IMG/VR virus record: IMGVR_UViG_3300045107_000228
Location: 1 to 29,846 of that record
Reading direction: 5' to 3' (one strand)
DNA: 29,846 bases
Origin: a virus
The notes under the pieces: generated by a model
Seen by the model: only the letters and a program-made list of their open reading frames with translations
What the model was told of the DNA's origin: nothing
The model's database searches: none
In this document: positions 15,962 to 27,290 of the stretch, in pieces
How the letters are laid out: each line of letters opens with the position of its first letter
Numbering within the stretch: position 1 is the stretch's first letter
Position numbers and translations under genes: made by a program

Positions 15962-16840
15962 ATGATCTATTGGCCTAATCCATACAAACGCTGTAGCAAG
16001 TGCGGTGAATGGAAGTTGGCGACGCTTGTTTGTTTCCCCAGAAGGCGACGAAATAAAGACGGCCTCGATAATCGATGCAAAGCATGCGCGTGCGGACAGA
16101 GCGAGGATTATCGAGACCGGAATCCTGAAAAGGTGCGGCAATCCCGCCGGGATCGCTATTGCGCAAATGCGGAGGATATTCGCGCAAAAGCACGACGCTA
16201 TTATGCTGATCATATTGAAGAGCGGCAGGCATACGACAGACGGCGATATCTGGCTAATCCTCAACTGAGATGCGAAACAGCCAAGCGCTCCCGCGAACGA
16301 AGCTACGGAGAATATGTCCGGCGACGAAGAGAGCGTCGCTTCAGCCGACGTGCGGAAATAAATCTTCAAAGGCGACAGCATCGCGCCCAAAATCTGGAAA
16401 GGTACCGTGAGCGCGCGCGCCTCTATCGACAGCGATACGGGCGTAAACGAGATCGACAAAAGGAGAATGAGCGTGCCCGACAGCGCTATAATCCCGAAAG
16501 GGGTCGCCAGCGCAATCACAAAAGACTGGCGCGCGCCCGATCCTTGCCATACGCCTTCACTCGCACCGATTGGCAACAATGCCTTGACTACTGGTGCGGC
16601 TTTTGCTGCTATTGCGCCGAACGCCGCGCTACCACAATCGATCATTTTATCCCGCTCGACTCTCCCGACTGCCCTGGTACGATCCCCGGCAATGTGCTTC
16701 CCGCCTGCGCGTCTTGCAACTACAGCAAGCAAAATCGCTCTGCCGGCGAATGGCTGGCGTGGAAATTCGGCGCGGATCAGGCGCGTGAAACCCTTGCCCT
16801 TATCCAGCAGTATTTTGAGTGGATAGAGACTCAAGGCTAG
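15962..16840 (+). CDS. Free-standing HNH endonuclease, 292 aa
   Basis: The C-terminal part (residues about 212-256) has an HNH/zinc-finger fold: CCYC (215-218), DH (227-228) with the catalytic His, N244, then CASCN (249-253). The N-terminus has a second Cys cluster (CSKC at 11-14, CKAC at 39-42). Between them is a long, extremely Arg-rich region with RRYYADH-like repeats, expected to bind DNA. GAGAGGG lies just before the ATG. It lies on the strand opposite to the structural genes, between two head genes, ending 5 bp before the convergent minus-strand gene. This is typical of homing endonucleases that invade phage genomes; it may also have brought the neighbouring cassette along. Confidence 0.85.
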   Translation: MIYWPNPYKRCSKCGEWKLATLVCFPRRRRNKDGLDNRCKACACGQSEDYRDRNPEKVRQSRRDRYCANAEDIRAKARRYYADHIEERQAYDRRRYLANPQLRCETAKRSRERSYGEYVRRRRERRFSRRAEINLQRRQHRAQNLERYRERARLYRQRYGRKRDRQKENERARQRYNPERGRQRNHKRLARARSLPYAFTRTDWQQCLDYWCGFCCYCAERRATTIDHFIPLDSPDCPGTIPGNVLPACASCNYSKQNRSAGEWLAWKFGADQARETLALIQQYFEWIETQG

Positions 16841-18079: not shown

Positions 18080-20809
18080 TCAGACTGCGATGTTATAGAG
18101 GATGCTCGCGCAGTAGACATCCCTGTTGATGAACGCCGGGCGGACGGTGGCCGTCATCTGATAGCTGTCGTAGTACGACAGGTATTCCGTGACGACGGAA
18201 ATCTTGCGGCGGTAGCCGCCATAGAACTGCGGCTTGCTGGCGATAACCAGACGCCCGCGCGTGTTGTTGCCGCCGGTGCTGCTGACCTTGCCATTGCTGG
18301 AGGCCAGAGACATTTCATTGCTGACCAGAACCGGGATGTTATCGATCTTGCCGACCTCACCCGTGATGACAGTGGCGTTCGTGCCGTACTTATCGACGGT
18401 CAGCAGCTCAGGCAGGCTGAGGAGCTTCATGTAGGTCGGGAAGTCGCAGAAGATCACCAGGTCTTGCGGACGCGCGGCGTAGGCGCTCAGAAGCTTGGCG
18501 CGCGTGGCGCGGATGTACGCCAGGGTGGGCGCGATGTTGCCCATGTCCAGTGCGTTGCCGCCACTGTTGCTGACCAGGGCCGTGTAGATGATGCCCTTGA
18601 ACGCCACATAATACTTTTCCGTGCCGCCCGGCGTCCCACCGTCATAGTTGACGTTGCCCGACGCGGTGTTGTCCGCGTTCAGGTACACGTTGTCGATGGC
18701 GTCTTCCAGCGCGCGCTGTCCCTGCTTGCGCAGTTGCGCCGCGAACGGAATGATGGCGTCCTCGTCGGATTCCATCGAATAACCGACGCGCAGCGCCAGC
18801 TTGTCAGCGGTCAGGGTGACCTTGCCGGTTGCCAGCTTGCTGTCCGGGATGGGATTGCCTGCCCCGGCGATGGTCAGGTGCGCTTCGTCGGAGGTCTCAG
18901 GAACCTTGTACACCGTCGGATCGGTGCTTTCGATGGGCAGCTCATACGGGTTGGACGGCATGTCGATCTGCGCGAACTGCGCTGCGACCACGTTGTCCAA
19001 CCGGGTGCGATCCCAGAGGCGGTTCAGCCACAGATCAGGAACCCACTCATCGCCATAACCCGACTGCGTGCTGGTATCCAGTTCGTTGGACTTGATGGCA
19101 TTGAATGCCTTGATTGCCAGATCCGGCAGGCGTGTCCCGAACGATACGGCTTTCGTCGCCTTGTCGGCCATTTCGCGCATGAATTCGATGGTGGGCCGGT
19201 ATGCCTCACCCTTCGCTTTGGCGATGCCCTTCATGAAGGTCGCTACATACGCCATGTCCTCGTGATCGAGGTCGGCATACTTGGTGCTGACCTGAATGCG
19301 CGCATTGCGCTCGTGACCGGAGGCGCGGAAGCCGCCTACCTGGCTGATGCCAGGCGTGCCAGCGATGGTCGCCTTCACCGCGTCCTTGATCGCCTGGGAG
19401 CCGGGCTTGCGCACATTGCGCACAACACTGGCGACTGCCTGCAAGAACTTCGGATCATGGATCGCCTTCTGCGTCATGTCCTCTTCAGGAACGGGCGTGC
19501 CATCAGTCTTGGCAGGCGGAACGCCTTCGGCAGCGTCTTCCTGCTGCTCATACTGCGTATAGACCGGCGTGACCTGCTGCACCAGTTGGGCCATTTCCTG
19601 CTCGTTAAGCTGGATACCCAGGGCTTCGGCAACCGCCTGCACCAGAGCTTGCATCATCTGCTCGTCCATTGCTTTATATCCCTTCGTTCGTTTTGGTTTA
19701 GAGTCGTTGGTTGGTTGGGTATCGCCCGCCGCGTCTTGTCCCGCGTCGCCTGCTTTAGCCGTCCCCGACGACTCTTCCAGGCTGGCGAGATACGCCTTGA
19801 GCGTGGTTACACGTGTGCGTTGGTATTCGGCTGGCGTGGGGGTCAGGCTGGCTTCCACCAATGCCCATCTTTTGATCCGCCCGTCATAGTCTTTTTCAAC
19901 AGACTGCGGCAGCGCGCCGCTGGACCATCCTAGCACGCCCTTGCCGATCAAATCCTGCACCGCCATGACATACTGGTTGTGCAGATCAAGCTGTGCCTCA
20001 GCCCACAGGCCCACATCGTCGGTCTTGATGCTGTCAACAAATCCAATGGCGGTAGTCTTCAACGTTGCATCAAAGCCGTGATGGTAAAGAACCGGGCGCT
20101 GCGAATACCAGTCGAGGCAGAACTCTGTCTCAGGTGTGAAGTATTCTCCTTCCAGGTCTTTGCCGCCGAAGGCCACCAGATAGCCTCCCACGCGCCCATT
20201 GCCGAGGGACTTGATCGCGCTGCCGAAGGCAATGGGCCGATCCAGCGATTTCATTACCTGCCCGGTTAGCGGCAGGTCGTACCGCTCATCGCCCCAGGCC
20301 AGGGTGACGTGATCGACGGTGAACGCCACAGGATCAATCACGATAGGCGGCGTGGCGATCTCCCGTGGGATATAGGCCAGCGTGAGGTGCGGCGTGAAAC
20401 CATGCGTCTGATCGGGTGTAATGCCGACTGCCTGGAGCGCGCCCAGGAGCCGCTGCCGGAAAGCGGGCAGGGCAGGCGAGTCGAAGTTGGCATAAAAGGC
20501 GTTGGGATCGGCATCCATAAAGCGCCCGATGCCGTTGAACTTGCCGTCCAATGGTGGCTCGTTGAGCGCGAATGCCCGCAATGCATCGATCACCGCCGTC
20601 TTCTGCTCATCCAGGGGTGCAGCGTCACCCAGATAGGCCAGCGTCACGTGCATGTCGTCGGGTTCCTGCATGGCAGCAGCATTACCACCATCGATGGCCC
20701 CGGCACAGCGCTCGAACAGGACAGTAGCCAGTGTCACCGGCGGGAAGAACGCAACCATCGCGCCCGTATTGCCCAGTGTCTTGTTGCTTGTTTGGTTTAT
20801 GTCTGACAT
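18080..20809 (-). CDS. Fusion: 2H phosphoesterase + prohead protease + HK97-type major capsid protein, 909 aa
   Basis: I chose ATG 20809 (GAGGG 4 bases upstream) over the longer frame from 20851. Three parts are visible. Residues about 15-185: a 2H phosphoesterase of the LigT/CPDase type with both catalytic motifs, H54-V-T56 (HVTLAYLG) and H141-L-T143 (HLTLAY). Residues about 190-340: an HK97-type prohead serine protease, with a GKDLEGEYF-like start, His at 243/244 (LYHHG), Ser at 296/297 (GWSSG) and E319 (VEAS). Residues about 381-909: a helical scaffold-like delta region followed by the HK97-fold capsid protein (segments NELDTSTQSGYGDEWVP, then YSMESDEDAI and so on). Protease and capsid fusions are known; the added 2H domain is unusual. 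The protease may release the 2H domain during maturation. The domain could act on 2'-5' or cyclic nucleotide bonds, as T4 Acb1 does on CBASS signals, but this is inference. Confidence 0.85.
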   Translation of the reverse strand: MSDINQTSNKTLGNTGAMVAFFPPVTLATVLFERCAGAIDGGNAAAMQEPDDMHVTLAYLGDAAPLDEQKTAVIDALRAFALNEPPLDGKFNGIGRFMDADPNAFYANFDSPALPAFRQRLLGALQAVGITPDQTHGFTPHLTLAYIPREIATPPIVIDPVAFTVDHVTLAWGDERYDLPLTGQVMKSLDRPIAFGSAIKSLGNGRVGGYLVAFGGKDLEGEYFTPETEFCLDWYSQRPVLYHHGFDATLKTTAIGFVDSIKTDDVGLWAEAQLDLHNQYVMAVQDLIGKGVLGWSSGALPQSVEKDYDGRIKRWALVEASLTPTPAEYQRTRVTTLKAYLASLEESSGTAKAGDAGQDAAGDTQPTNDSKPKRTKGYKAMDEQMMQALVQAVAEALGIQLNEQEMAQLVQQVTPVYTQYEQQEDAAEGVPPAKTDGTPVPEEDMTQKAIHDPKFLQAVASVVRNVRKPGSQAIKDAVKATIAGTPGISQVGGFRASGHERNARIQVSTKYADLDHEDMAYVATFMKGIAKAKGEAYRPTIEFMREMADKATKAVSFGTRLPDLAIKAFNAIKSNELDTSTQSGYGDEWVPDLWLNRLWDRTRLDNVVAAQFAQIDMPSNPYELPIESTDPTVYKVPETSDEAHLTIAGAGNPIPDSKLATGKVTLTADKLALRVGYSMESDEDAIIPFAAQLRKQGQRALEDAIDNVYLNADNTASGNVNYDGGTPGGTEKYYVAFKGIIYTALVSNSGGNALDMGNIAPTLAYIRATRAKLLSAYAARPQDLVIFCDFPTYMKLLSLPELLTVDKYGTNATVITGEVGKIDNIPVLVSNEMSLASSNGKVSSTGGNNTRGRLVIASKPQFYGGYRRKISVVTEYLSYYDSYQMTATVRPAFINRDVYCASILYNIAV
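19667..19685 (-). promoter_or_regulatory. Internal ribosome-binding site and start inside the capsid fusion
   Basis: Codon 381 of the fusion is an ATG (19667-19669) preceded by GAAGGGA (19679-19685) at a spacing of 9 bases. Initiation here would give a 529-residue scaffold-plus-capsid protein without the 2H and protease parts. That would solve the dosage problem of making hundreds of capsid subunits but few proteases, as nested lambda C/Nu3 does for scaffold. Confidence 0.55.
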
Positions 20810-20932: not shown

Positions 20933-21121
20933 TTACCGCTTCATGCGCTGCGGCTCACCCCTCGGAGTCCAGCGTACAACCTGGTTGCACGCGCCACAGA
21001 CAAATGAAAGGATTTGCACGCGCCGATCCGCGGTTAGCAGCCGCCCGTCTTCGACGATCAGATCATCGACGACATGCTTGCAGCGTGGGCATCTGGCGGG
21101 GGTGGCTGTCGTAATCGACAT
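20933..21121 (-). CDS. Small zinc-ribbon protein (Com-like), 62 aa
   Basis: The ATG at 21121 overlaps the portal stop codon by one base (TAATG). Two CxxC pairs (CPRC near residue 11, CGAC near residue 43) flank a beta-rich stretch, as in Com-like zinc ribbons found near Mu-like head genes. The role is unknown; Com of Mu regulates translation, which could be relevant here, but the similarity is only in the pattern. Confidence 0.7.
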   Translation of the reverse strand: MSITTATPARCPRCKHVVDDLIVEDGRLLTADRRVQILSFVCGACNQVVRWTPRGEPQRMKR

Positions 21122-23292
21122 TAGAACCGTCCCCTCGCTGGCTCTGTCACCCGCTCGAAACCGCAGTCGCAGTTGAAGCCCTGGCATTCCAGCCGGTCGG
21201 ACTTGGGAACCCAGCCGCGCGCATACCATTGCTTCAGCCGGTGGACTTGTCCGTTCAGCCGCTTACAATCGCCGCAGTGTTCCTCGGTACGCCCCAGCTT
21301 CCAGACATACAAGCCGTTCTTATCGGCAGACAGCAAGCCTGCCTGGTACATCTGCTCCAGGCTCTTGTTGGCCCAGGCCTGCGCCCGGCTCTCGATCTCA
21401 AGCTCAGACAAGCCCTGCTTGAACACCTCGTTAGCGAAGGAACTGATGTACTCGGACTGCTTCATCAGCCAACTTTGCACCTGGAAGAGATCGTCCTCGT
21501 CGAGCGGATCATTCACGCCGCCCTTTTGCAGGCCATCCTGGAAGGCCATCTGGCCCAACCGGCGAAGCTGGGCGCGCATGACCGTCCCAAAGCGCCGCCG
21601 GGACACTTCTTCATTCAGCCCGCCCCGGATCAGATCGGTCAGGTTGCTGATGAATTCGGCGCGGGTGGCATCGTAGTCCTTGATCGCTTCAGCTTCATCC
21701 ACCAGACGCGGCACGTCGGCCAGCCGCTCAGTCGCGCGAGCAAATATGTCCTTGATTACATCCTTGTCCAGCGTCTTGGCCGCCGCGATCTCGGAACGGA
21801 TGTGATCCGCCAGCACGGACGGCGTGTTGTAGCACACGAACCGCAGCGCTTTATTGCGCCCACTGTTCAGCGCTGCGCGTTCCCATGCCGCCAGTTCCGT
21901 CGATGGGGTGAGCTGCTTCGGCTTATCGGGCGCAGCGTCCGATGGCGTGGACGGTGTGATCGTCGCAGTGAACGGCGCGACCGGCTGCGGCTTGGCCTGC
22001 TGCATCAGCGCTTGAATGTTGGCGAGTTGATCAACCGGCACCGCCGTAAACCCGGACGGGATCAGCAGGACATCACCGCCGGGCAGGGGTGGCTCATTGA
22101 ACGCCGCGCGCGCGCCGTTGATGGTCATTACCCCGGCCTGCACCCGCGCACTGATCACGCTTGATTTCTGGGTTACGTCTTCAATCGACACTTTCACGTC
22201 GGTGAAGTCGAACTCGAAGCGCGTCTGCCCGCTCATATCGAAGAAGGGCATCAGGCTGGTGTTGATCATCTCGGCGAACAGATCACACTCCGGGAAAATC
22301 GTTTCGTAATACAGGCTGCGGCGCTGCTCCGGCAGGCTCTGATAGGTCGCATCATCCCAGGCCCCGGCCAGGGAGAGCGGCACACCTATCGCAGCGGCGA
22401 TCTTGCGGCGCTGCGATTGCTCCAGCTCAGGCTGCTCCGGTACGGGTTCGCGTTGAATGGCGAGCCACTCCACCGGCTGGTCTGAGACAAATGTCCGCCC
22501 ACGATTCTTCGCCCCCTTGAGCTGCTCCTGGATTTTGGCGAGGAGCGCGTTGTACTGCTTATCGTTCAGCGGGATGCCCTTCGGCGTCACAATCCCATCC
22601 GGGCGGGAGTCGTTCCGATACCAGGCGCGGGTCGCGCGCTGAATGTCCCGATCCACGTTTACGGCATCCAGTGCGACCGTCATCGGGGCCAGGCCGCGAA
22701 AATCATCCAGCGGATTGCGGTACTTGTGGTAGATAATATCGTTCGGCTTGAACCGCTGAATCCGCCCGGATGTATTGTCGCTGTAGTCGTACCAGGCGAT
22801 CCGACCATCATAGATATAGGGCTCGATTGCCGCTGGATTCAGCCAACGCACGCCGGTCGCCATGCTGAAGACGTTGCGAATCTTCTCAAGATAGGCTTCG
22901 CCCCAGATACACAGCGCCATTTCCCAATCGAACAGCAGATCGCTCTGCGCGAAACGGAACGCCTCCCGGATTGCCAGCATCATCGGGTGATCGGGAATTT
23001 CTTTACCGGTCTGGATGTTGACGACCCGCCGCTTGATGCGTGACACCGCCTGGGCGCGGATCATGATGCAGCGATAAGCCCAGGCAGAGGCCTGCACGGC
23101 AAAGGCGAGACCAATATCATCGCCCGGAATCTCGATCCGGACGGCGGGGGTGGGGCTGTCGCTGCTGCTCGGCGTGTCCGATTTGATTGCCGAGAGGGTT
23201 CCGTCGCCGCGCAGGATAAGCAACTGCGACGCGGCTCTCACGGCGGGCTGCACCGAATTGCGTGAAATGGTCCAGCCGAATAGTGTCGCCAT
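21121..23292 (-). CDS. Portal protein fused to a MuF-like C-terminal domain, 723 aa
   Basis: Residues about 40-430 match an HK97-type portal: WAYRCIMIRAQAVS near the start, GEAYLEKIRN, LNPAAIEPYI, then IIYHKYRNPLDDFRGLAPM and AAAIGVPLSLAGAW. The portal ring is the packaging motor docking site. A Pro/Thr-rich linker (about 435-475) leads to a helical domain and a Cys/His cluster (HCGDCKRLNGQVH, then ECQGFNCDCGF) typical of MuF/minor head proteins. Such portal-MuF fusions occur in several phage groups. The gene starts 2 bp after the large terminase stop. Confidence 0.88.
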   Translation of the reverse strand: MATLFGWTISRNSVQPAVRAASQLLILRGDGTLSAIKSDTPSSSDSPTPAVRIEIPGDDIGLAFAVQASAWAYRCIMIRAQAVSRIKRRVVNIQTGKEIPDHPMMLAIREAFRFAQSDLLFDWEMALCIWGEAYLEKIRNVFSMATGVRWLNPAAIEPYIYDGRIAWYDYSDNTSGRIQRFKPNDIIYHKYRNPLDDFRGLAPMTVALDAVNVDRDIQRATRAWYRNDSRPDGIVTPKGIPLNDKQYNALLAKIQEQLKGAKNRGRTFVSDQPVEWLAIQREPVPEQPELEQSQRRKIAAAIGVPLSLAGAWDDATYQSLPEQRRSLYYETIFPECDLFAEMINTSLMPFFDMSGQTRFEFDFTDVKVSIEDVTQKSSVISARVQAGVMTINGARAAFNEPPLPGGDVLLIPSGFTAVPVDQLANIQALMQQAKPQPVAPFTATITPSTPSDAAPDKPKQLTPSTELAAWERAALNSGRNKALRFVCYNTPSVLADHIRSEIAAAKTLDKDVIKDIFARATERLADVPRLVDEAEAIKDYDATRAEFISNLTDLIRGGLNEEVSRRRFGTVMRAQLRRLGQMAFQDGLQKGGVNDPLDEDDLFQVQSWLMKQSEYISSFANEVFKQGLSELEIESRAQAWANKSLEQMYQAGLLSADKNGLYVWKLGRTEEHCGDCKRLNGQVHRLKQWYARGWVPKSDRLECQGFNCDCGFERVTEPARGRF

Positions 23293-23294
23293 CG

Positions 23295-24782
23295 TTATAA
23301 GTCCAAATCCTGTAGCTGGCCCACATGACCACTGGTGGCCGTTGCCTGCACCGCTAACGCATACGAGTCGGCCCGGTCGTCATGCTCGCCTTCCGGCGCG
23401 CGGAGCGTTGCGCCTTCGATGCTGCCCATCTGCGTATAGGTAGCGAAACTGTGCATGATCGTTGTTCCATCACGCAGGGCATCCGCAGCGCCATCGTAGA
23501 GGAGGGCCTTCCCCTTCGAGTTGCTCAACCAGCCGGGCTTCTGATCCCAGCCATAGATCACGAAGAGGGAGCCGTTGTCCCGCAGCCACATAATCACGGC
23601 ATGACCGTGATTGTTGCGCTCGCACAGCACACCAGCGTTGTTGTAATACTGGCCGACCTGGTTGATATAGGAGGCAAAGACGCTTGGTTCAAACTTCCCG
23701 GCCAGCGCTGCCACCTCTTCGCCGGTGATCGTGTCCATGAGGGTGAACGCGCTGTCATCGCTCGTCGGGTTGCCTTCGGCAGGATCGGCCCCGATGCAGT
23801 AATCGCGTCCGGGCTGCGGCAGTTCGTATAATTCGAGCTGGGGGATCGCCGGTGCTTCATCGGGCAGCGGCAGCGGCTTACGTTCGTCGTAGCAGGCCAG
23901 CAGCCATTGTGGGGCAATACGCTTATCGAGCGTCCGCGAGGCCAATGCCTGAACATCGGTCTCCGGGTACTGCTCGTATAGATCGTCCAGTGCGCCGGTA
24001 GTATGCTGAACATCCTGCTTCTGCCGTTCGTACCACGCCTGATCACGGCCTGGGTGAACATACCAGGGCAGGAAGACGGCGGCCCAGCCGTTTAGCTGCT
24101 GCTTGGCCGCGCGGTAGATTTGCTTGAACCGGGAGTTGGGCGTGCTTTTATCGACGCGGCTGATCAGCGCCATCTTGCCGCCCGCGTCAATCGTCGGCTT
24201 GGCGCTGCCGAGCAGCCGTGCCAGGTCAGGAACGAGATCGGCTTCATCGACGATTGCCAACGTTGCGGTGTACCCATCGCCGCCGGATGTCGGGAAGGCT
24301 CGCGCCACACTGCCGTTGGACAATGCCCACTGGTGCTTGTCGTCGGTCTTCACGGCGTTGGCCTGCATCCACAGCGGCAGCCGCTTGTACATTCCGCGCA
24401 GGCGCTCTTCGCCGAGCAAGTAGACGGCTTCATCGTCGCGCTTGGAGAAGATCAGGACGGTGGCAATCGGCTTGAAGATCATCTGCCACAAGGCATAGCC
24501 CAGGAGCAGCCAGGTCATGCCGATCTGCCGCGCCTTCAGGATGATGGAAAGCTGATTCTCGTGGACGGTGCGCAGCGCGAGGCGTTGGGCTTCCCACAGG
24601 TGGAAGGGAATCCAGTTGCTTGCCTCGGCATCATACACCTGGCAATACGTGTCGATGAAGTAGGCAGGATCGTTCGCACAGCGTTCCCACTCAACGCTGT
24701 GTGTGCCATCGGCAGGCTTCTTCCGCAACCGTATCACGGCAGCCGCCCGGCTAATCCCTGGATAAACGCTAGTCGCGTTCAC
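23295..24782 (-). CDS. terL: Terminase large subunit, 495 aa
   Basis: The ATPase part has a variant Walker A (KARQIGMTW, residues 83-91) and Walker B (LAIVDE, 175-180). The RNase H-like nuclease part has D333 (IGADPAEG), E388 (CERNNHG) and the D468/D469/D472 cluster (EHDDRAD). This enzyme drives DNA into the prohead and cuts it. Start is a GTG at 24782 with GGAG about 10 bases upstream, overlapping the small subunit gene by 14 bp. The 3 terminase-portal genes form the standard packaging order. Confidence 0.95.
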   Translation of the reverse strand: MNATSVYPGISRAAAVIRLRKKPADGTHSVEWERCANDPAYFIDTYCQVYDAEASNWIPFHLWEAQRLALRTVHENQLSIILKARQIGMTWLLLGYALWQMIFKPIATVLIFSKRDDEAVYLLGEERLRGMYKRLPLWMQANAVKTDDKHQWALSNGSVARAFPTSGGDGYTATLAIVDEADLVPDLARLLGSAKPTIDAGGKMALISRVDKSTPNSRFKQIYRAAKQQLNGWAAVFLPWYVHPGRDQAWYERQKQDVQHTTGALDDLYEQYPETDVQALASRTLDKRIAPQWLLACYDERKPLPLPDEAPAIPQLELYELPQPGRDYCIGADPAEGNPTSDDSAFTLMDTITGEEVAALAGKFEPSVFASYINQVGQYYNNAGVLCERNNHGHAVIMWLRDNGSLFVIYGWDQKPGWLSNSKGKALLYDGAADALRDGTTIMHSFATYTQMGSIEGATLRAPEGEHDDRADSYALAVQATATSGHVGQLQDLDL

Positions 24783-25257
24783 CGTTCGCCAACTCCTCCA
24801 TCATCAACTGGAACGCCTCAGAGGGCGTTAACCCGTACTTCTTCAGCAAGACCGCCTGTTCAGGGTCGATCCGAATCGTCATCTTGTCGCCGTATTTGTC
24901 CGGCTTGTTGGCCTTCAGCATCAAGGCCATCAGCGAGTCGCTGTACTCGCGCATATAGCCGATGCGCTCGCCCTTGTAATGAATGGGCTTCAATACACCA
25001 CGCTCGGCCCGGCGGCGCGCTTCCAGTTCCAGCCGGTCAGCCGCCATCTCCAGGGCTTCATCCCAAGTAGCGGCAAAAGCGGCATCCCGTTCGCGTCGAT
25101 CATAGACCGTGCGACGAGCAACTTTGGCGGCTTCGCAGGCGGTAGTGACCACGCCGTAACGACGCAGGGCAGTCAGAAATGCTTTATCCCAACTATGCGC
25201 AGGCGCGCGTTGGGCTGTGCGTTTTTGTGCGGTTTTCCCCGTCCGTTTGCCTGCCAC
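24769..25257 (-). CDS. terS: Terminase small subunit, 162 aa
   Basis: I use the GTG at 25257, 10 bases after GGAG; a longer frame from 25278 would overlap the tiny membrane gene. Residues about 18-55 are a helix-turn-helix (FLTALRRYGVVTTACEAAKVARRTVYDRR), the usual DNA-recognition domain of small terminases, followed by a helical oligomerisation region. Directly upstream of, and overlapping, the large subunit gene. Confidence 0.85.
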   Translation of the reverse strand: MAGKRTGKTAQKRTAQRAPAHSWDKAFLTALRRYGVVTTACEAAKVARRTVYDRRERDAAFAATWDEALEMAADRLELEARRRAERGVLKPIHYKGERIGYMREYSDSLMALMLKANKPDKYGDKMTIRIDPEQAVLLKKYGLTPSEAFQLMMEELANGERD

Positions 25258-25258
25258 G

Positions 25259-25339
25259 CTACTTACGCTCCAACACACTGATCACGAACAGACCGAGCAT
25301 CACGCCGAGTGTCGCGTAGAAACCGAATGCGACGATCAT
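25259..25339 (-). CDS. 26-aa hydrophobic membrane peptide
   Basis: ATG at 25339 overlaps the stop of the preceding gene (ATGA); TAG at 25259-25261 lies 1 base before the small terminase start. The product is one transmembrane helix (IVAFGFYATLGVMLGLFVISVL) ending in a short basic-acidic tail. Start and stop overlaps with both neighbours and strong hydrophobicity argue that it is translated. Function unknown: small membrane peptides in phages range from holin-like to exclusion factors. Confidence 0.6.
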   Translation of the reverse strand: MIVAFGFYATLGVMLGLFVISVLERK

Positions 25340-25687: not shown

Positions 25688-25728
25688 TTGTATTATATAG
25701 GCTCATGCTGTATAATACTTGCATGAGC
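25688..25728 (+). promoter_or_regulatory. tnpA promoter with inverted repeat; probable leaderless transcript
   Basis: TTGTAT (25688-25693), 17 bp, TATAAT (25711-25716) gives a start near 25722-25724, at the tnpA ATG (25723). There is no SD, so tnpA would be leaderless. GCTCATGC (25701-25708) and GCATGAGC (25721-25728) form an inverted repeat around the -10, a possible operator. Confidence 0.65.
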
Positions 25729-26127
25729 AGCGAACGAACCTTCAAGAGCAACCACAACGTGGTGTACTCCTGCAAGTACCACATCATCTTTTGTCCCAAA
25801 TACCGCCGCAGCGTCTTGGTACGGGGTGTGGATGCGCGTTTCAAAGACATTGCGACGACGTTGGCGGCTGAGATGCGCGTAGACATCCTTGAATTAGAAG
25901 TGATGCCCGACCACGTACATCTGTTATGCGAGATTGATCCGCAGTTGGGTGTCCACAAGTTCGTGAAGCATCTCAAGGGACGTAGTTCGCGGCAGCTGCG
26001 CCAGGAATTTGACTGGTTGCGCTCCCGTTTGCCGACGCTGTGGACGAACTCGTACTTTGTGGCGACGGTTGGCGGCGCACCGCTGGCAGTCATCAAGCAG
26101 TATATCGAGAACCAGAAACACGTCTGA
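25723..26127 (+). CDS. tnpA: IS200/IS605 transposase TnpA (Y1 HUH), 134 aa
   Basis: The HUH motif is H64-V-H66 (MPDHVHLL), and the catalytic tyrosine is Y127 (VIKQYIENQ). These nick and join single-stranded DNA at the element ends. Length is normal for the family. The ATG at 25723 is preferred to 25705, since it fits the promoter position and gives a standard N-terminus; both are in frame. The stop overlaps the tnpB start by one base (TGATG). Confidence 0.95.
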   Translation: MSSERTFKSNHNVVYSCKYHIIFCPKYRRSVLVRGVDARFKDIATTLAAEMRVDILELEVMPDHVHLLCEIDPQLGVHKFVKHLKGRSSRQLRQEFDWLRSRLPTLWTNSYFVATVGGAPLAVIKQYIENQKHV

Positions 26128-27290
26128 TGCAGCGCAAGACCTTCAAGTACCGTCTGTACCCCACCCCACCGCAAGCCCGCTTGCTGGCGCAAGTGCTGGA
26201 TGTATGCCGCCACTGGTACAATATGTGCATCGAAGACCGCAAGTTGGCGTGGGAACTGGAACAGCGCAGCGTCACGAAGGGTCAGCAAGAAAAGACGGGC
26301 ATCCACTACCGCCGTACCTTCCCCAAAGCACAGGCCGTCTTTAGCCAGACGATGCAGGTGGTATGTGACGACGTAGATAAGGCGTATCAAGCCTTCTTTC
26401 GCCGCCTTAAGGCGGGTGAAACGCCGGGCTACCCGCGCTTCAAGGGCTACTACCACTTTGACAGCTTTGGCTTCAAGCAGTACGGTTCTGGCATTAAAAT
26501 CGACGGACGGCGCTTGAAGATATTCGGGGTAGGGCGGGTGCGCGTGCGGTGGGATCGCTCCATCGAAGGCACGATCAAGACCGTTCGCATCCGGCGCACC
26601 GCTGGCAAGTGGTATGCCTGTTTTAGCGTTGAACTGCCCGACCCCACGCCGCTTAACCCAACCGGACAGCAGATCGGCATCGATCTGAACGTGGAAAACC
26701 TGCTCACCGACAGCATGGGCAACCGCCGCGAGTCGCCTAAATACTACCGGCAAGCGCAGCGTGATCTGCGCCTTGCCCAACGTGCCGTGCAGCGCAAACA
26801 GCAGGGCAGCCAGAACCGTCGCAAGGCAATTTTGCGCGTTCAGCGTTTGCACGAACACATCAAGAACCAACGGCAAGACCTCCTCAACAAAGTTGCCCAT
26901 GACTACACGCGGGCCTTCGATTTGATTGCCCTCGAAGACCTGCGCATCACCAATATGGTACGCAATCGTCACCTCAGCAAAAGCATTTTGGATGCGGGTT
27001 GGGGCTACCTGCGCAACCGATTGACCGTCAAAGCTGCGAACGCTGGACGACAAATCGTGCTGGTAGACCCGGCCTATACCTCCAAGACTTGCTCGCACTG
27101 TGGTCAACTGTTCTCCGATCTAACCCTTGCCGATAGGTGGGTCACTTGCGATGCTTGTGGTCTAAGTCTCGCCCGCGACCACAATGCCGCGATCAATATT
27201 CTCAAGCGGGCGACTATCGGATGGGACACATCCGTACCGCTTAACGTAGCCCCGCTGCCAGCAGGATCGGTAAGGGCAAGCGTGCGGTAG
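26127..27290 (+). CDS. tnpB: RNA-guided nuclease TnpB, 387 aa
   Basis: All catalytic positions of the RuvC-like domain are present: D186 (GIDLNVENL), E270 (IALEDLR) and D351 (ARDHNAAIN). The four-Cys zinc finger is C322, C325, C341, C344. The N-terminal WED/REC-like part begins KTFKYRLYPTPPQ. Length (387) is typical, so this looks active. TnpB proteins use an RNA from the right end of the element to cut DNA matching the flank, which maintains the element after excision. The ATG at 26127 overlaps the tnpA stop; the longer upstream frame is a shadow of tnpA. Confidence 0.95.
   Translation: MQRKTFKYRLYPTPPQARLLAQVLDVCRHWYNMCIEDRKLAWELEQRSVTKGQQEKTGIHYRRTFPKAQAVFSQTMQVVCDDVDKAYQAFFRRLKAGETPGYPRFKGYYHFDSFGFKQYGSGIKIDGRRLKIFGVGRVRVRWDRSIEGTIKTVRIRRTAGKWYACFSVELPDPTPLNPTGQQIGIDLNVENLLTDSMGNRRESPKYYRQAQRDLRLAQRAVQRKQQGSQNRRKAILRVQRLHEHIKNQRQDLLNKVAHDYTRAFDLIALEDLRITNMVRNRHLSKSILDAGWGYLRNRLTVKAANAGRQIVLVDPAYTSKTCSHCGQLFSDLTLADRWVTCDACGLSLARDHNAAINILKRATIGWDTSVPLNVAPLPAGSVRASVR

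What the first reader, a model, noticed from the sequence alone, without database searches (positions are those of the whole stretch)
18080..20809. 2H phosphoesterase, prohead protease and capsid in one open reading frame
One continuous 909-codon frame has both 2H HxT motifs (H54/T56, H141/T143), a His-Ser-Glu protease part and an HK97-type capsid. Protease-capsid fusions are known; a 2H domain at the front is the surprise. 2H enzymes include anti-CBASS Acb1 of T4 and RNA end-repair enzymes. Making one as part of the prohead would deliver it inside the capsid, or release it by the phage's own protease, at assembly or at infection.
Basis: partly seen in the sequence, partly recalled or inferred. 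Interest (0 to 1): 0.85.

Follow-up and report, generated by a model that had tools for sequence, protein, structure and literature searches.

The report
Phage capsid polyprotein carrying 2H enzyme
A virus of Chloroflexota bacteria makes an enzyme that cuts RNA ends or small signalling nucleotides as the front end of its shell-building protein, probably so that it rides inside the new particle; related viruses carry the same kind of enzyme on other shell parts, so this is a new arrangement of a known idea.

Summary
It encodes a LigT-type 2H phosphoesterase, a prohead S78 protease, a scaffold-like stretch and an HK97-fold capsid. It is not an assembly artefact: an 84% identical homologue lies in another metagenome, and two Chloroflexota genomes (43% and 37% identical) have the same order. 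dN/dS of the 2H part is 0.10, and all four distinct tri-fusions keep both HxT motifs. AlphaFold gives a confident 2H fold, nearer CPDase/LigT than Acb1.

2H domains recur in phage head genes: portal, MuF, protease, or alone beside them. In this phage's kin 2H sits either in the portal or in front of the protease-capsid, never seen in both; one relative has an ADP-ribosyltransferase in the portal slot. Trees reject one origin for the tri-fusion 2H domains (AU p about 2e-6). A [ILV]-K-[AST] motif sits at all three domain junctions.

Best reading: a head-carried effector, released by the phage's own protease, acting on host nucleotide signals or RNA ends. 2H-MuF and 2H-portal fusions were already published with that proposal, so this is a new variant of a known kind. 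Substrate, release and delivery are untested.

The parts
18080..20809 (-). 2H-protease-scaffold-capsid polyprotein gene (909 aa, P0001)
   Evidence: open frame; Pfam/PHROGs/NCBIfam; homologues with the same order L153, L073, L128
20814..20818 (-). GAGGG ribosome-binding site, 4 nt before the ATG at 20809
   Evidence: sequence and anti-SD pairing -6.1 kcal/mol
20258..20770 (-). 2H phosphoesterase domain (residues 14-184), LigT/CPDase type
   Evidence: Pfam 6.2e-15; AF2 pLDDT 91.5; PDB fold 5h7e 5.7e-10, 1iuh TM 0.79; dN/dS 0.10
20642..20650 (-). first HxT motif, H54-V-T56
   Evidence: among the only 4 invariant columns of 19 head-linked 2H domains
20381..20389 (-). second HxT motif, H141-L-T143
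   Evidence: as above; 24 of 26 rows intact in a second set
20222..20263 (-). low-confidence linker between 2H and protease (residues 183-196)
   Evidence: full-length AF2, pLDDT under 50
20210..20212 (-). K200, putative self-cleavage site AIK|SL that would free the 2H domain
   Evidence: invariant in 29 of 29 relatives; cleavage is inference
19790..20197 (-). prohead protease domain S78 (residues 205-340), invariant H244, S297, E319
   Evidence: Pfam PF04586 3.2e-5, TIGR01543 6.5e-5, invariant residues
19796..19798 (-). K338, second putative cleavage site TLK|AY
   Evidence: Lys in 82% of 28 relatives, inside low-confidence segment 322-379
19094..19789 (-). helical scaffold (delta)-like stretch (residues 341-572)
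   Evidence: predicted helices with low-confidence joins, dN/dS 0.36
19091..19093 (-). K573, third putative cleavage site AIK|SNEL; start of mature capsid
   Evidence: invariant in 29 of 29 relatives, inside low-confidence segment 563-588
18083..19090 (-). HK97-fold major capsid domain (residues 574-909)
   Evidence: Foldseek PDB 8ho3 3.0e-12, 8zvi, 1ohg; phrog_10 1.7e-7
21121..23292 (-). portal protein with MuF-like C-terminus; holds no 2H domain here, unlike many relatives
   Evidence: Pfam PF04860 1.8e-46; census
23295..24782 (-). terminase large subunit
   Evidence: phrog_2 8.4e-32
24769..25278 (-). terminase small subunit
   Evidence: phrog_4044 1.4e-36

Best explanation
The gene makes a capsid polyprotein whose first 190 or so residues are a LigT-type 2H phosphoesterase with an intact active site. 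Because the scaffold parts (and protease) of HK97-type capsid precursors lie inside the procapsid, the 2H domain is drawn inside with them. The built-in S78 protease then cuts at the conserved Lys junctions (K200, K338, K573), freeing the 2H domain, removing itself and the scaffold, and leaving the mature shell protein. The freed 2H enzyme serves in conflict with the host, most likely by cutting a nucleotide signal (cyclic di- or trinucleotide, 2'-5' oligoadenylate) or a 2',3'-cyclic-phosphate RNA end, most likely on entry with the DNA into the next cell. Shown: the fusion, the predicted fold, the catalytic residues, strong selection, recurrence on other head genes, and an ADP-ribosyltransferase in the same slot of a relative. 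Inferred: encapsidation, cleavage at those lysines, delivery, substrate.
For: Same order in four assemblies: window, L153/L234 (84%), L073 = L235 = L269 (Anaerolineaceae NAT290, 43%), L128 (37%). In 19 head-linked 2H domains with mean column identity 31% the only invariant columns are the four HxT residues. dN/dS of 2H 0.10 against capsid 0.14. Fold confident and LigT/CPDase-like. Carriers: portal (L001, L009, L010, L016, L236-L238, L244, L246, L247, L254-L256, L279, L280), Portal_Mu (L005), MuF (L066, L068), S78_2 protease (L003, L065, L069, L154-L163, L281, L282), S78 protease (L004, L283), separate gene beside the portal (L067, L071). The slot in the portal of relative L240 holds an ADP-ribosyltransferase exoenzyme (2.5e-19) with a visible R / STT / ExE pattern instead; 2H and ADP-ribosyltransferase genes adjoin beside the portal in Gordonia phages. 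Tri-fusion 2H domains are not one clade (AU p 1.6e-6 and 2.4e-6), so the same slot was filled at least twice. The [ILV]-K-[AST] motif sits at all three junctions, in or beside predicted linkers; K200 and K573 are the only 2 of 45 lysines invariant in 29 relatives. No RNA ligase (PF09414) or RtcB in the window or in the 49-kb relative. HK97 scaffold is N-terminal and internal (PMC10275583). 2H-MuF/portal fusions were read as injected effectors by Iyer et al. (PMC5512222, PMC9503650).
Against: K200 is also conserved in relatives without a 2H domain, so it did not arise to free 2H. If every capsid subunit carried one, about 415 copies of a 21-kDa domain (T=7, estimate from general knowledge) would fill roughly a tenth of the head, which has to be squared with DNA packing. 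No internal start with a convincing ribosome site was found that would supply 2H-free capsid. The 2H fold is nearer to housekeeping LigT/CPDase than to Acb1. About half the relatives with both genes visible carry no recognised 2H, so it is dispensable. Mutual exclusion of portal and capsid carriers (0 of 37 have both) is not significant by itself (about 1.5 expected). No proteomics or biochemistry.
Confidence: 0.55

Rival explanations
1. Late, in-cell action: the 2H enzyme is tied to the capsid not for injection but so that it appears in bulk exactly when capsid protein does, when capsid-sensing or late-acting signalling defences fire, and it destroys the signal in the producing cell.
For: T4 cyclic-nucleotide degradation by Acb1 begins about 15 min into infection, matching the late onset of CBASS (PMC9117128); Thoeris cyclases sense major capsid proteins (PMC12578639). 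The genome of the host with the L073 prophage holds a SMODS CD-NTase. Fusion gives one 2H per capsid.
Against: Portal-borne copies (12 per head) would supply little enzyme. An enzyme shut in the procapsid is away from a cytosolic signal. A separate late gene would do as well.
Confidence: 0.2
2. RNA end healing: the 2H domain opens 2',3'-cyclic phosphates left by anticodon nucleases or toxins, as CPDase/LigT would, before ligation.
For: Closest solved folds are RNA 2',3'-cyclic phosphodiesterases (5h7e, LigT).
Against: No RNA ligase or RtcB in the window or in relative G003 (both may be fragments, and the NAT290 host genome has RtcB). Iyer et al. never saw this class of 2H with ligases. Repair needs no tie to the capsid.
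Confidence: 0.15
3. Structural passenger: the domain helps prohead assembly, for example as scaffold or chaperone, and its enzymatic activity is a relic.
For: It sits where scaffold parts lie; one related 2H-protease fusion (L163) has lost both HxT motifs.
Against: HxT residues are the only invariant ones in 19 divergent head-linked copies; most kin assemble without it; an ADP-ribosyltransferase takes its place in L240; carriers differ.
Confidence: 0.07
4. Sequencing or assembly error joined two genes.
For: None found.
Against: Four independent assemblies with the same in-frame order, one at 84% identity with dN/dS 0.17 overall.
Confidence: 0.01

Closest known systems
2H domains fused to MuF or portal in phage polyvalent/head proteins (Iyer et al. 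2017 PMC5512222; 2022 PMC9503650)
   Same: 2H enzyme carried on a head-building protein; proposed to be packaged and injected, acting as RNase or against nucleotide signals.
   Different: Here the carrier is the protease-scaffold-capsid polyprotein, in which the 2H would be made in capsid numbers with a protease beside it. The papers name MuF and portal for 2H, and the serine peptidase for Nudix; I found no mention of this one.
2H-S78_2 proteins of actinophages (Arthrobacter Salgado gp18, Microbacterium ValentiniPuff gp7, Arthrobacter Ottawa gp87; phrog_14859)
   Same: 2H domain directly in front of a prohead protease.
   Different: Protease of the XkdF/S78_2 type, capsid in a separate gene.
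Protease-capsid polyproteins (Pseudomonas PAJU2 P85500, Lactococcus Nocturne116 ORF18, Microbacterium clusters EE and EL)
   Same: Prohead protease, scaffold and HK97 capsid in one gene, thought to cut itself (PMC8306868; PMC7302621).
   Different: No enzyme reported in front.
VIP2-type ADP-ribosyltransferase fused to MuF (Microbacterium EH/EJ) and packaged T4 Alt
   Same: Effector enzyme carried by or in the head; relative L240 carries one in its portal.
   Different: Other chemistry, other carrier.
Acb1 (T4 57B) anti-CBASS nuclease and poxvirus LigT-like cGAMP PDEs
   Same: 2H fold, HxT/HxT tetrad, viral use against nucleotide signals.
   Different: Stand-alone proteins; Acb1 fold is distant (TMq 0.45); no activity known here.

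Membership tests
2H phosphoesterase superfamily (LigT/ThpR/CPDase-like) | two HxT/S motifs | tested here: met
   H54/T56 and H141/T143
2H phosphoesterase superfamily (LigT/ThpR/CPDase-like) | two-lobed 2H fold | tested here: met
   AF2 pLDDT 91.5, pTM 0.87; Foldseek 5h7e, 5ldm, 1iuh TM 0.73-0.79
2H phosphoesterase superfamily (LigT/ThpR/CPDase-like) | hydrolysis of cyclic or 2'-5' phosphodiesters | not testable with these tools
   needs an assay
Acb1 (anti-CBASS) | match to Acb1 family model above cut-off | tested here: not met
   no Acb1 (PF23474) hit for the window protein; only weak hits in some relatives' portals (1.2e-4, below cut-off); fold TMq 0.45
HK97-type prohead protease (S78) | family model above cut-off and His/Ser/Glu triad | tested here: met
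   PF04586 24.6 bits over 21; H244, S297, E319 invariant; triad assignment from family knowledge
HK97-fold major capsid protein | HK97 fold | tested here: met
   Foldseek of the full model against DT57C, T5, HK97 capsids 3e-12 to 8e-8; sequence models just below cut-off
HK97-fold major capsid protein | proteolytic removal of the N-terminal scaffold | tested here: inconclusive
   conserved Lys motif at junctions in predicted linkers; no protein data
Head-packaged injected effector (polyvalent protein) | effector-type domain fused to a head-building protein | tested here: met
Head-packaged injected effector (polyvalent protein) | present in the virion and delivered to the host | not testable with these tools
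   no proteomics available

The most novel reading that the evidence does not exclude
The phage builds an anti-defence enzyme in one-to-one ratio with its capsid protein, loads it inside every head as part of the scaffold, and frees hundreds of copies with the built-in maturation protease, so that each infecting particle brings a bolus of signal-destroying enzyme; the N-terminus of the protease-capsid protein and the joint between portal core and MuF are general, exchangeable effector bays.
Probability: 0.25. Interest if true: 0.8.

Novelty: new variant of a known kind. Interest (0 to 1): 0.6.

Why it matters
It shows where in a phage head an effector enzyme can be carried and how it could be freed: the enzyme, the protease that would cut it loose and the shell are one polypeptide. 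That turns the long-standing proposal that phages inject head-packaged enzymes against host defence into a single-gene experiment in E. coli: express the gene, look for a free 2H fragment, and assay it. The recurrent, independent attachment of 2H domains to portal, MuF, protease and capsid genes, and the ADP-ribosyltransferase in the same slot, give a search rule (look for extra domains at these joints) for finding further unknown phage effectors. It also corrects a common annotation: several 'RNA ligase' genes beside actinophage portals are 2H phosphoesterases fused to head proteins.

Tried and rejected
Assembly artefact: rejected by four assemblies and dN/dS. Acb1 membership: rejected. Internal restart at Met187 that would give 2H-free capsid: a Met follows the 2H in all tri-fusions, but no convincing ribosome site (window -6.8 kcal/mol at 9 nt, none in L153), so left open. 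N-terminal extensions of other protease-capsid genes (L012, L017, L020, L031, L046, L050, L056, L062) as further 2H domains: not 2H. Single origin of the tri-fusion 2H domains: rejected (AU); one clade for L073 and L128 alone not rejected (p 0.12). AU test on the protease-capsid tree for the three tri-fusions did not finish. Statistical test of mutual exclusion: too few cases, relatives not independent. A 2H-only alignment scan of viral contigs was not possible. RNA-ligase partner: not found. Virion proteomics of a cultured phage with a 2H head fusion: none found in the library.

Full report
1. What is there. The window is the whole of a 29,846-base IMG/VR virus record, perhaps a fragment. The frame lies on the minus strand, 20809 to 18080, 909 codons. 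Curated models give a 2H domain (Pfam 2_5_RNA_ligase2 6.2e-15, LigT 5.1e-9), a prohead protease (Peptidase_S78 3.2e-5) and, more weakly, a phage capsid (TIGR01554 5.3e-6, phrog_10 1.7e-7). The gene follows terminase and portal genes on the same strand. The start at 20809 has a GAGGG site and agrees with the close homologue.

2. Structure. AlphaFold on 26 natural 2H sequences gives a confident model for the window's 2H part (pLDDT 91.5, pTM 0.87). The nearest solved folds are Deinococcus radiodurans CPDase 5h7e (5.7e-10), E. coli LigT and Thermus TT0787 (TM 0.73-0.79); Acb1 is far behind (TMq 0.45). A profile search of PDB sequences ranks the same way (5h7e 3.8e-15, LigT 5.4e-7, Acb1 2.5e-4). 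In predicted viral structures the nearest are actinophage proteins linked to head genes. The full-length model (pLDDT 67) matches HK97-fold capsids (8ho3 3.0e-12) and CPDase in one chain and has low-confidence linkers at 183-196, 322-379 and 563-588.

3. It is real and under selection. L153/L234, a 49-kb contig from another metagenome, holds the same gene, 903 aa, 84% identical. dN/dS is 0.10 for 2H, 0.16 protease, 0.36 scaffold stretch, 0.14 capsid. Two Chloroflexota genomes hold the same order: L073 (Anaerolineaceae NAT290, in a 2.7-Mb contig; apparently also IMG/VR L235, same frame length and positions) and L128. Among 249 genomes of that class only NAT290 itself has the tri-fusion, so it is rare.

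4. The same enzyme on other head genes. A census with an iterated profile and Pfam shows 2H domains inside portals, between the portal core and the MuF-like end (L001, L009, L010, L016, L236-L238, L244, L246, L247, L254-L256, L279, L280), after a Mu-type portal (L005), after MuF (L066, L068), before an S78_2 protease (L003, L065, L069, L154-L163, L281, L282), after an S78 protease (L004, L283), and as a separate gene beside the portal and an ADP-ribosyltransferase gene (L067, L071). In loci of this protease-capsid family with both genes visible, 2H is in the portal in 14 (some near-duplicates), in the capsid gene in 4, in neither in 19 (10 viral, 9 genomic), in both in none; the exclusion is suggestive, not significant. 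One 'neither' phage, L240, has an ADP-ribosyltransferase exoenzyme (2.5e-19; R, STT and ExE visible) in its portal at the place of the 2H.

5. Origin. In trees of the 2H domains, window and L153 fall with actinophage, Deinococcus and some Chloroflexota head-linked copies (100/99), while L073 and L128 fall with portal-borne copies of their own kin (100/99). One clade for the tri-fusion domains is rejected (p 0.0013, 1.6e-6, 2.4e-6). On the protease-capsid tree the window's sister is L001, whose 2H is in the portal (SH-aLRT 91, quick tree with long branches). So the front slot was filled at least twice, or refilled. In 19 domains of mean identity 31% only the four HxT residues are invariant; 24 of 26 in a second set keep them, L163 has lost both.

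6. How it may work. HK97-type precursors have the scaffold at the N-terminus, inside the procapsid (PMC10275583). A [ILV]-K-[AST] motif lies at the 2H/protease, protease/scaffold and scaffold/capsid joints; K200 and K573 are the only invariant lysines out of 45 in 29 relatives, K338 is present in 82%. I read these as cut sites of the built-in protease; this is inference, and K200 is conserved also where there is no 2H. Freed 2H would then be trapped in the head or lost. The target is open: LigT-like viral enzymes cut cGAMP (PMC11410667), Acb1 cuts cyclic di- and trinucleotides (PMC9117128), and cellular kin cut 2',3'-cyclic-phosphate RNA. No RNA ligase or RtcB is in the window or in the 49-kb relative. 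The host of the L073 prophage has a SMODS CD-NTase, which is compatible with a CBASS target but proves nothing. My estimates by step: tri-fusion real 0.99; 2H enzymatically active 0.9; inside the procapsid 0.8; released by the protease 0.6; delivered to the next cell 0.45; nucleotide signal as target 0.45, RNA end 0.35.

7. What was known. Iyer et al. reported 2H fused to MuF or portal and proposed packaging and action against nucleotide signals or RNA (PMC5512222; PMC9503650); the latter also reports Nudix fused to MuF, portal and the capsid-processing peptidase. Protease-capsid fusions are known (PMC8306868; PMC7302621). I found no report of a 2H-protease-capsid protein in the searched library, which lacks most subscription papers. 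Hence: new variant of a known kind.

Noticed in passing
L117 7965-9755 (+) and similar genes in L074-L152, L270-L278: A 580-620 aa protease-capsid fusion stands alone among ordinary chromosomal genes (copper chaperone, SDR, D-Ala ligase, lysine aminomutase) in L117; 68 of 79 Anaerolineae loci show no recognised portal within reach. dN/dS 0.07-0.21 in eight close pairs. Candidate domesticated, protease-bearing HK97 shell, perhaps encapsulin-like.
   Followed up: partly
L240 867-4310 (+): Portal protein with an ADP-ribosyltransferase exoenzyme domain between portal core and MuF, in the slot where relatives hold a 2H domain.
   Followed up: partly
L163 3872-5044 (+): 2H-S78_2 protein in which both HxT motifs are lost; an inactivated relative or a new role.
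   Followed up: no
L017 6218-8812, L031 3044-4414, L046 1-1488 (+): Other prohead-protease genes carry long N-terminal extensions (about 260-320 aa) with Cys-rich stretches that are not 2H; perhaps other passengers.
   Followed up: no
window 25705-27290 (+): IS200-type TnpA (Y1_Tnp 1e-42) followed by TnpB (OrfB_IS605 9.9e-26, Cas12f1-like_TNB), upstream of the terminase genes and on the opposite strand.
   Followed up: no
window 20933-21121 (-): 62-aa ORF with two CxxC pairs (zinc-ribbon-like, by eye), start overlapping the portal stop, between portal and polyprotein; absent in L153, where the portal and polyprotein genes abut.
   Followed up: no
window 15962-16840 (+): 292-aa ORF on the strand opposite to the late genes whose C-terminal part looks like an HNH endonuclease (by eye); possible homing gene.
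   Followed up: no
G001 C4:80963-81328: SMODS CD-NTase (1.8e-33) in the genome that holds the L073 tri-fusion prophage.
   Followed up: no
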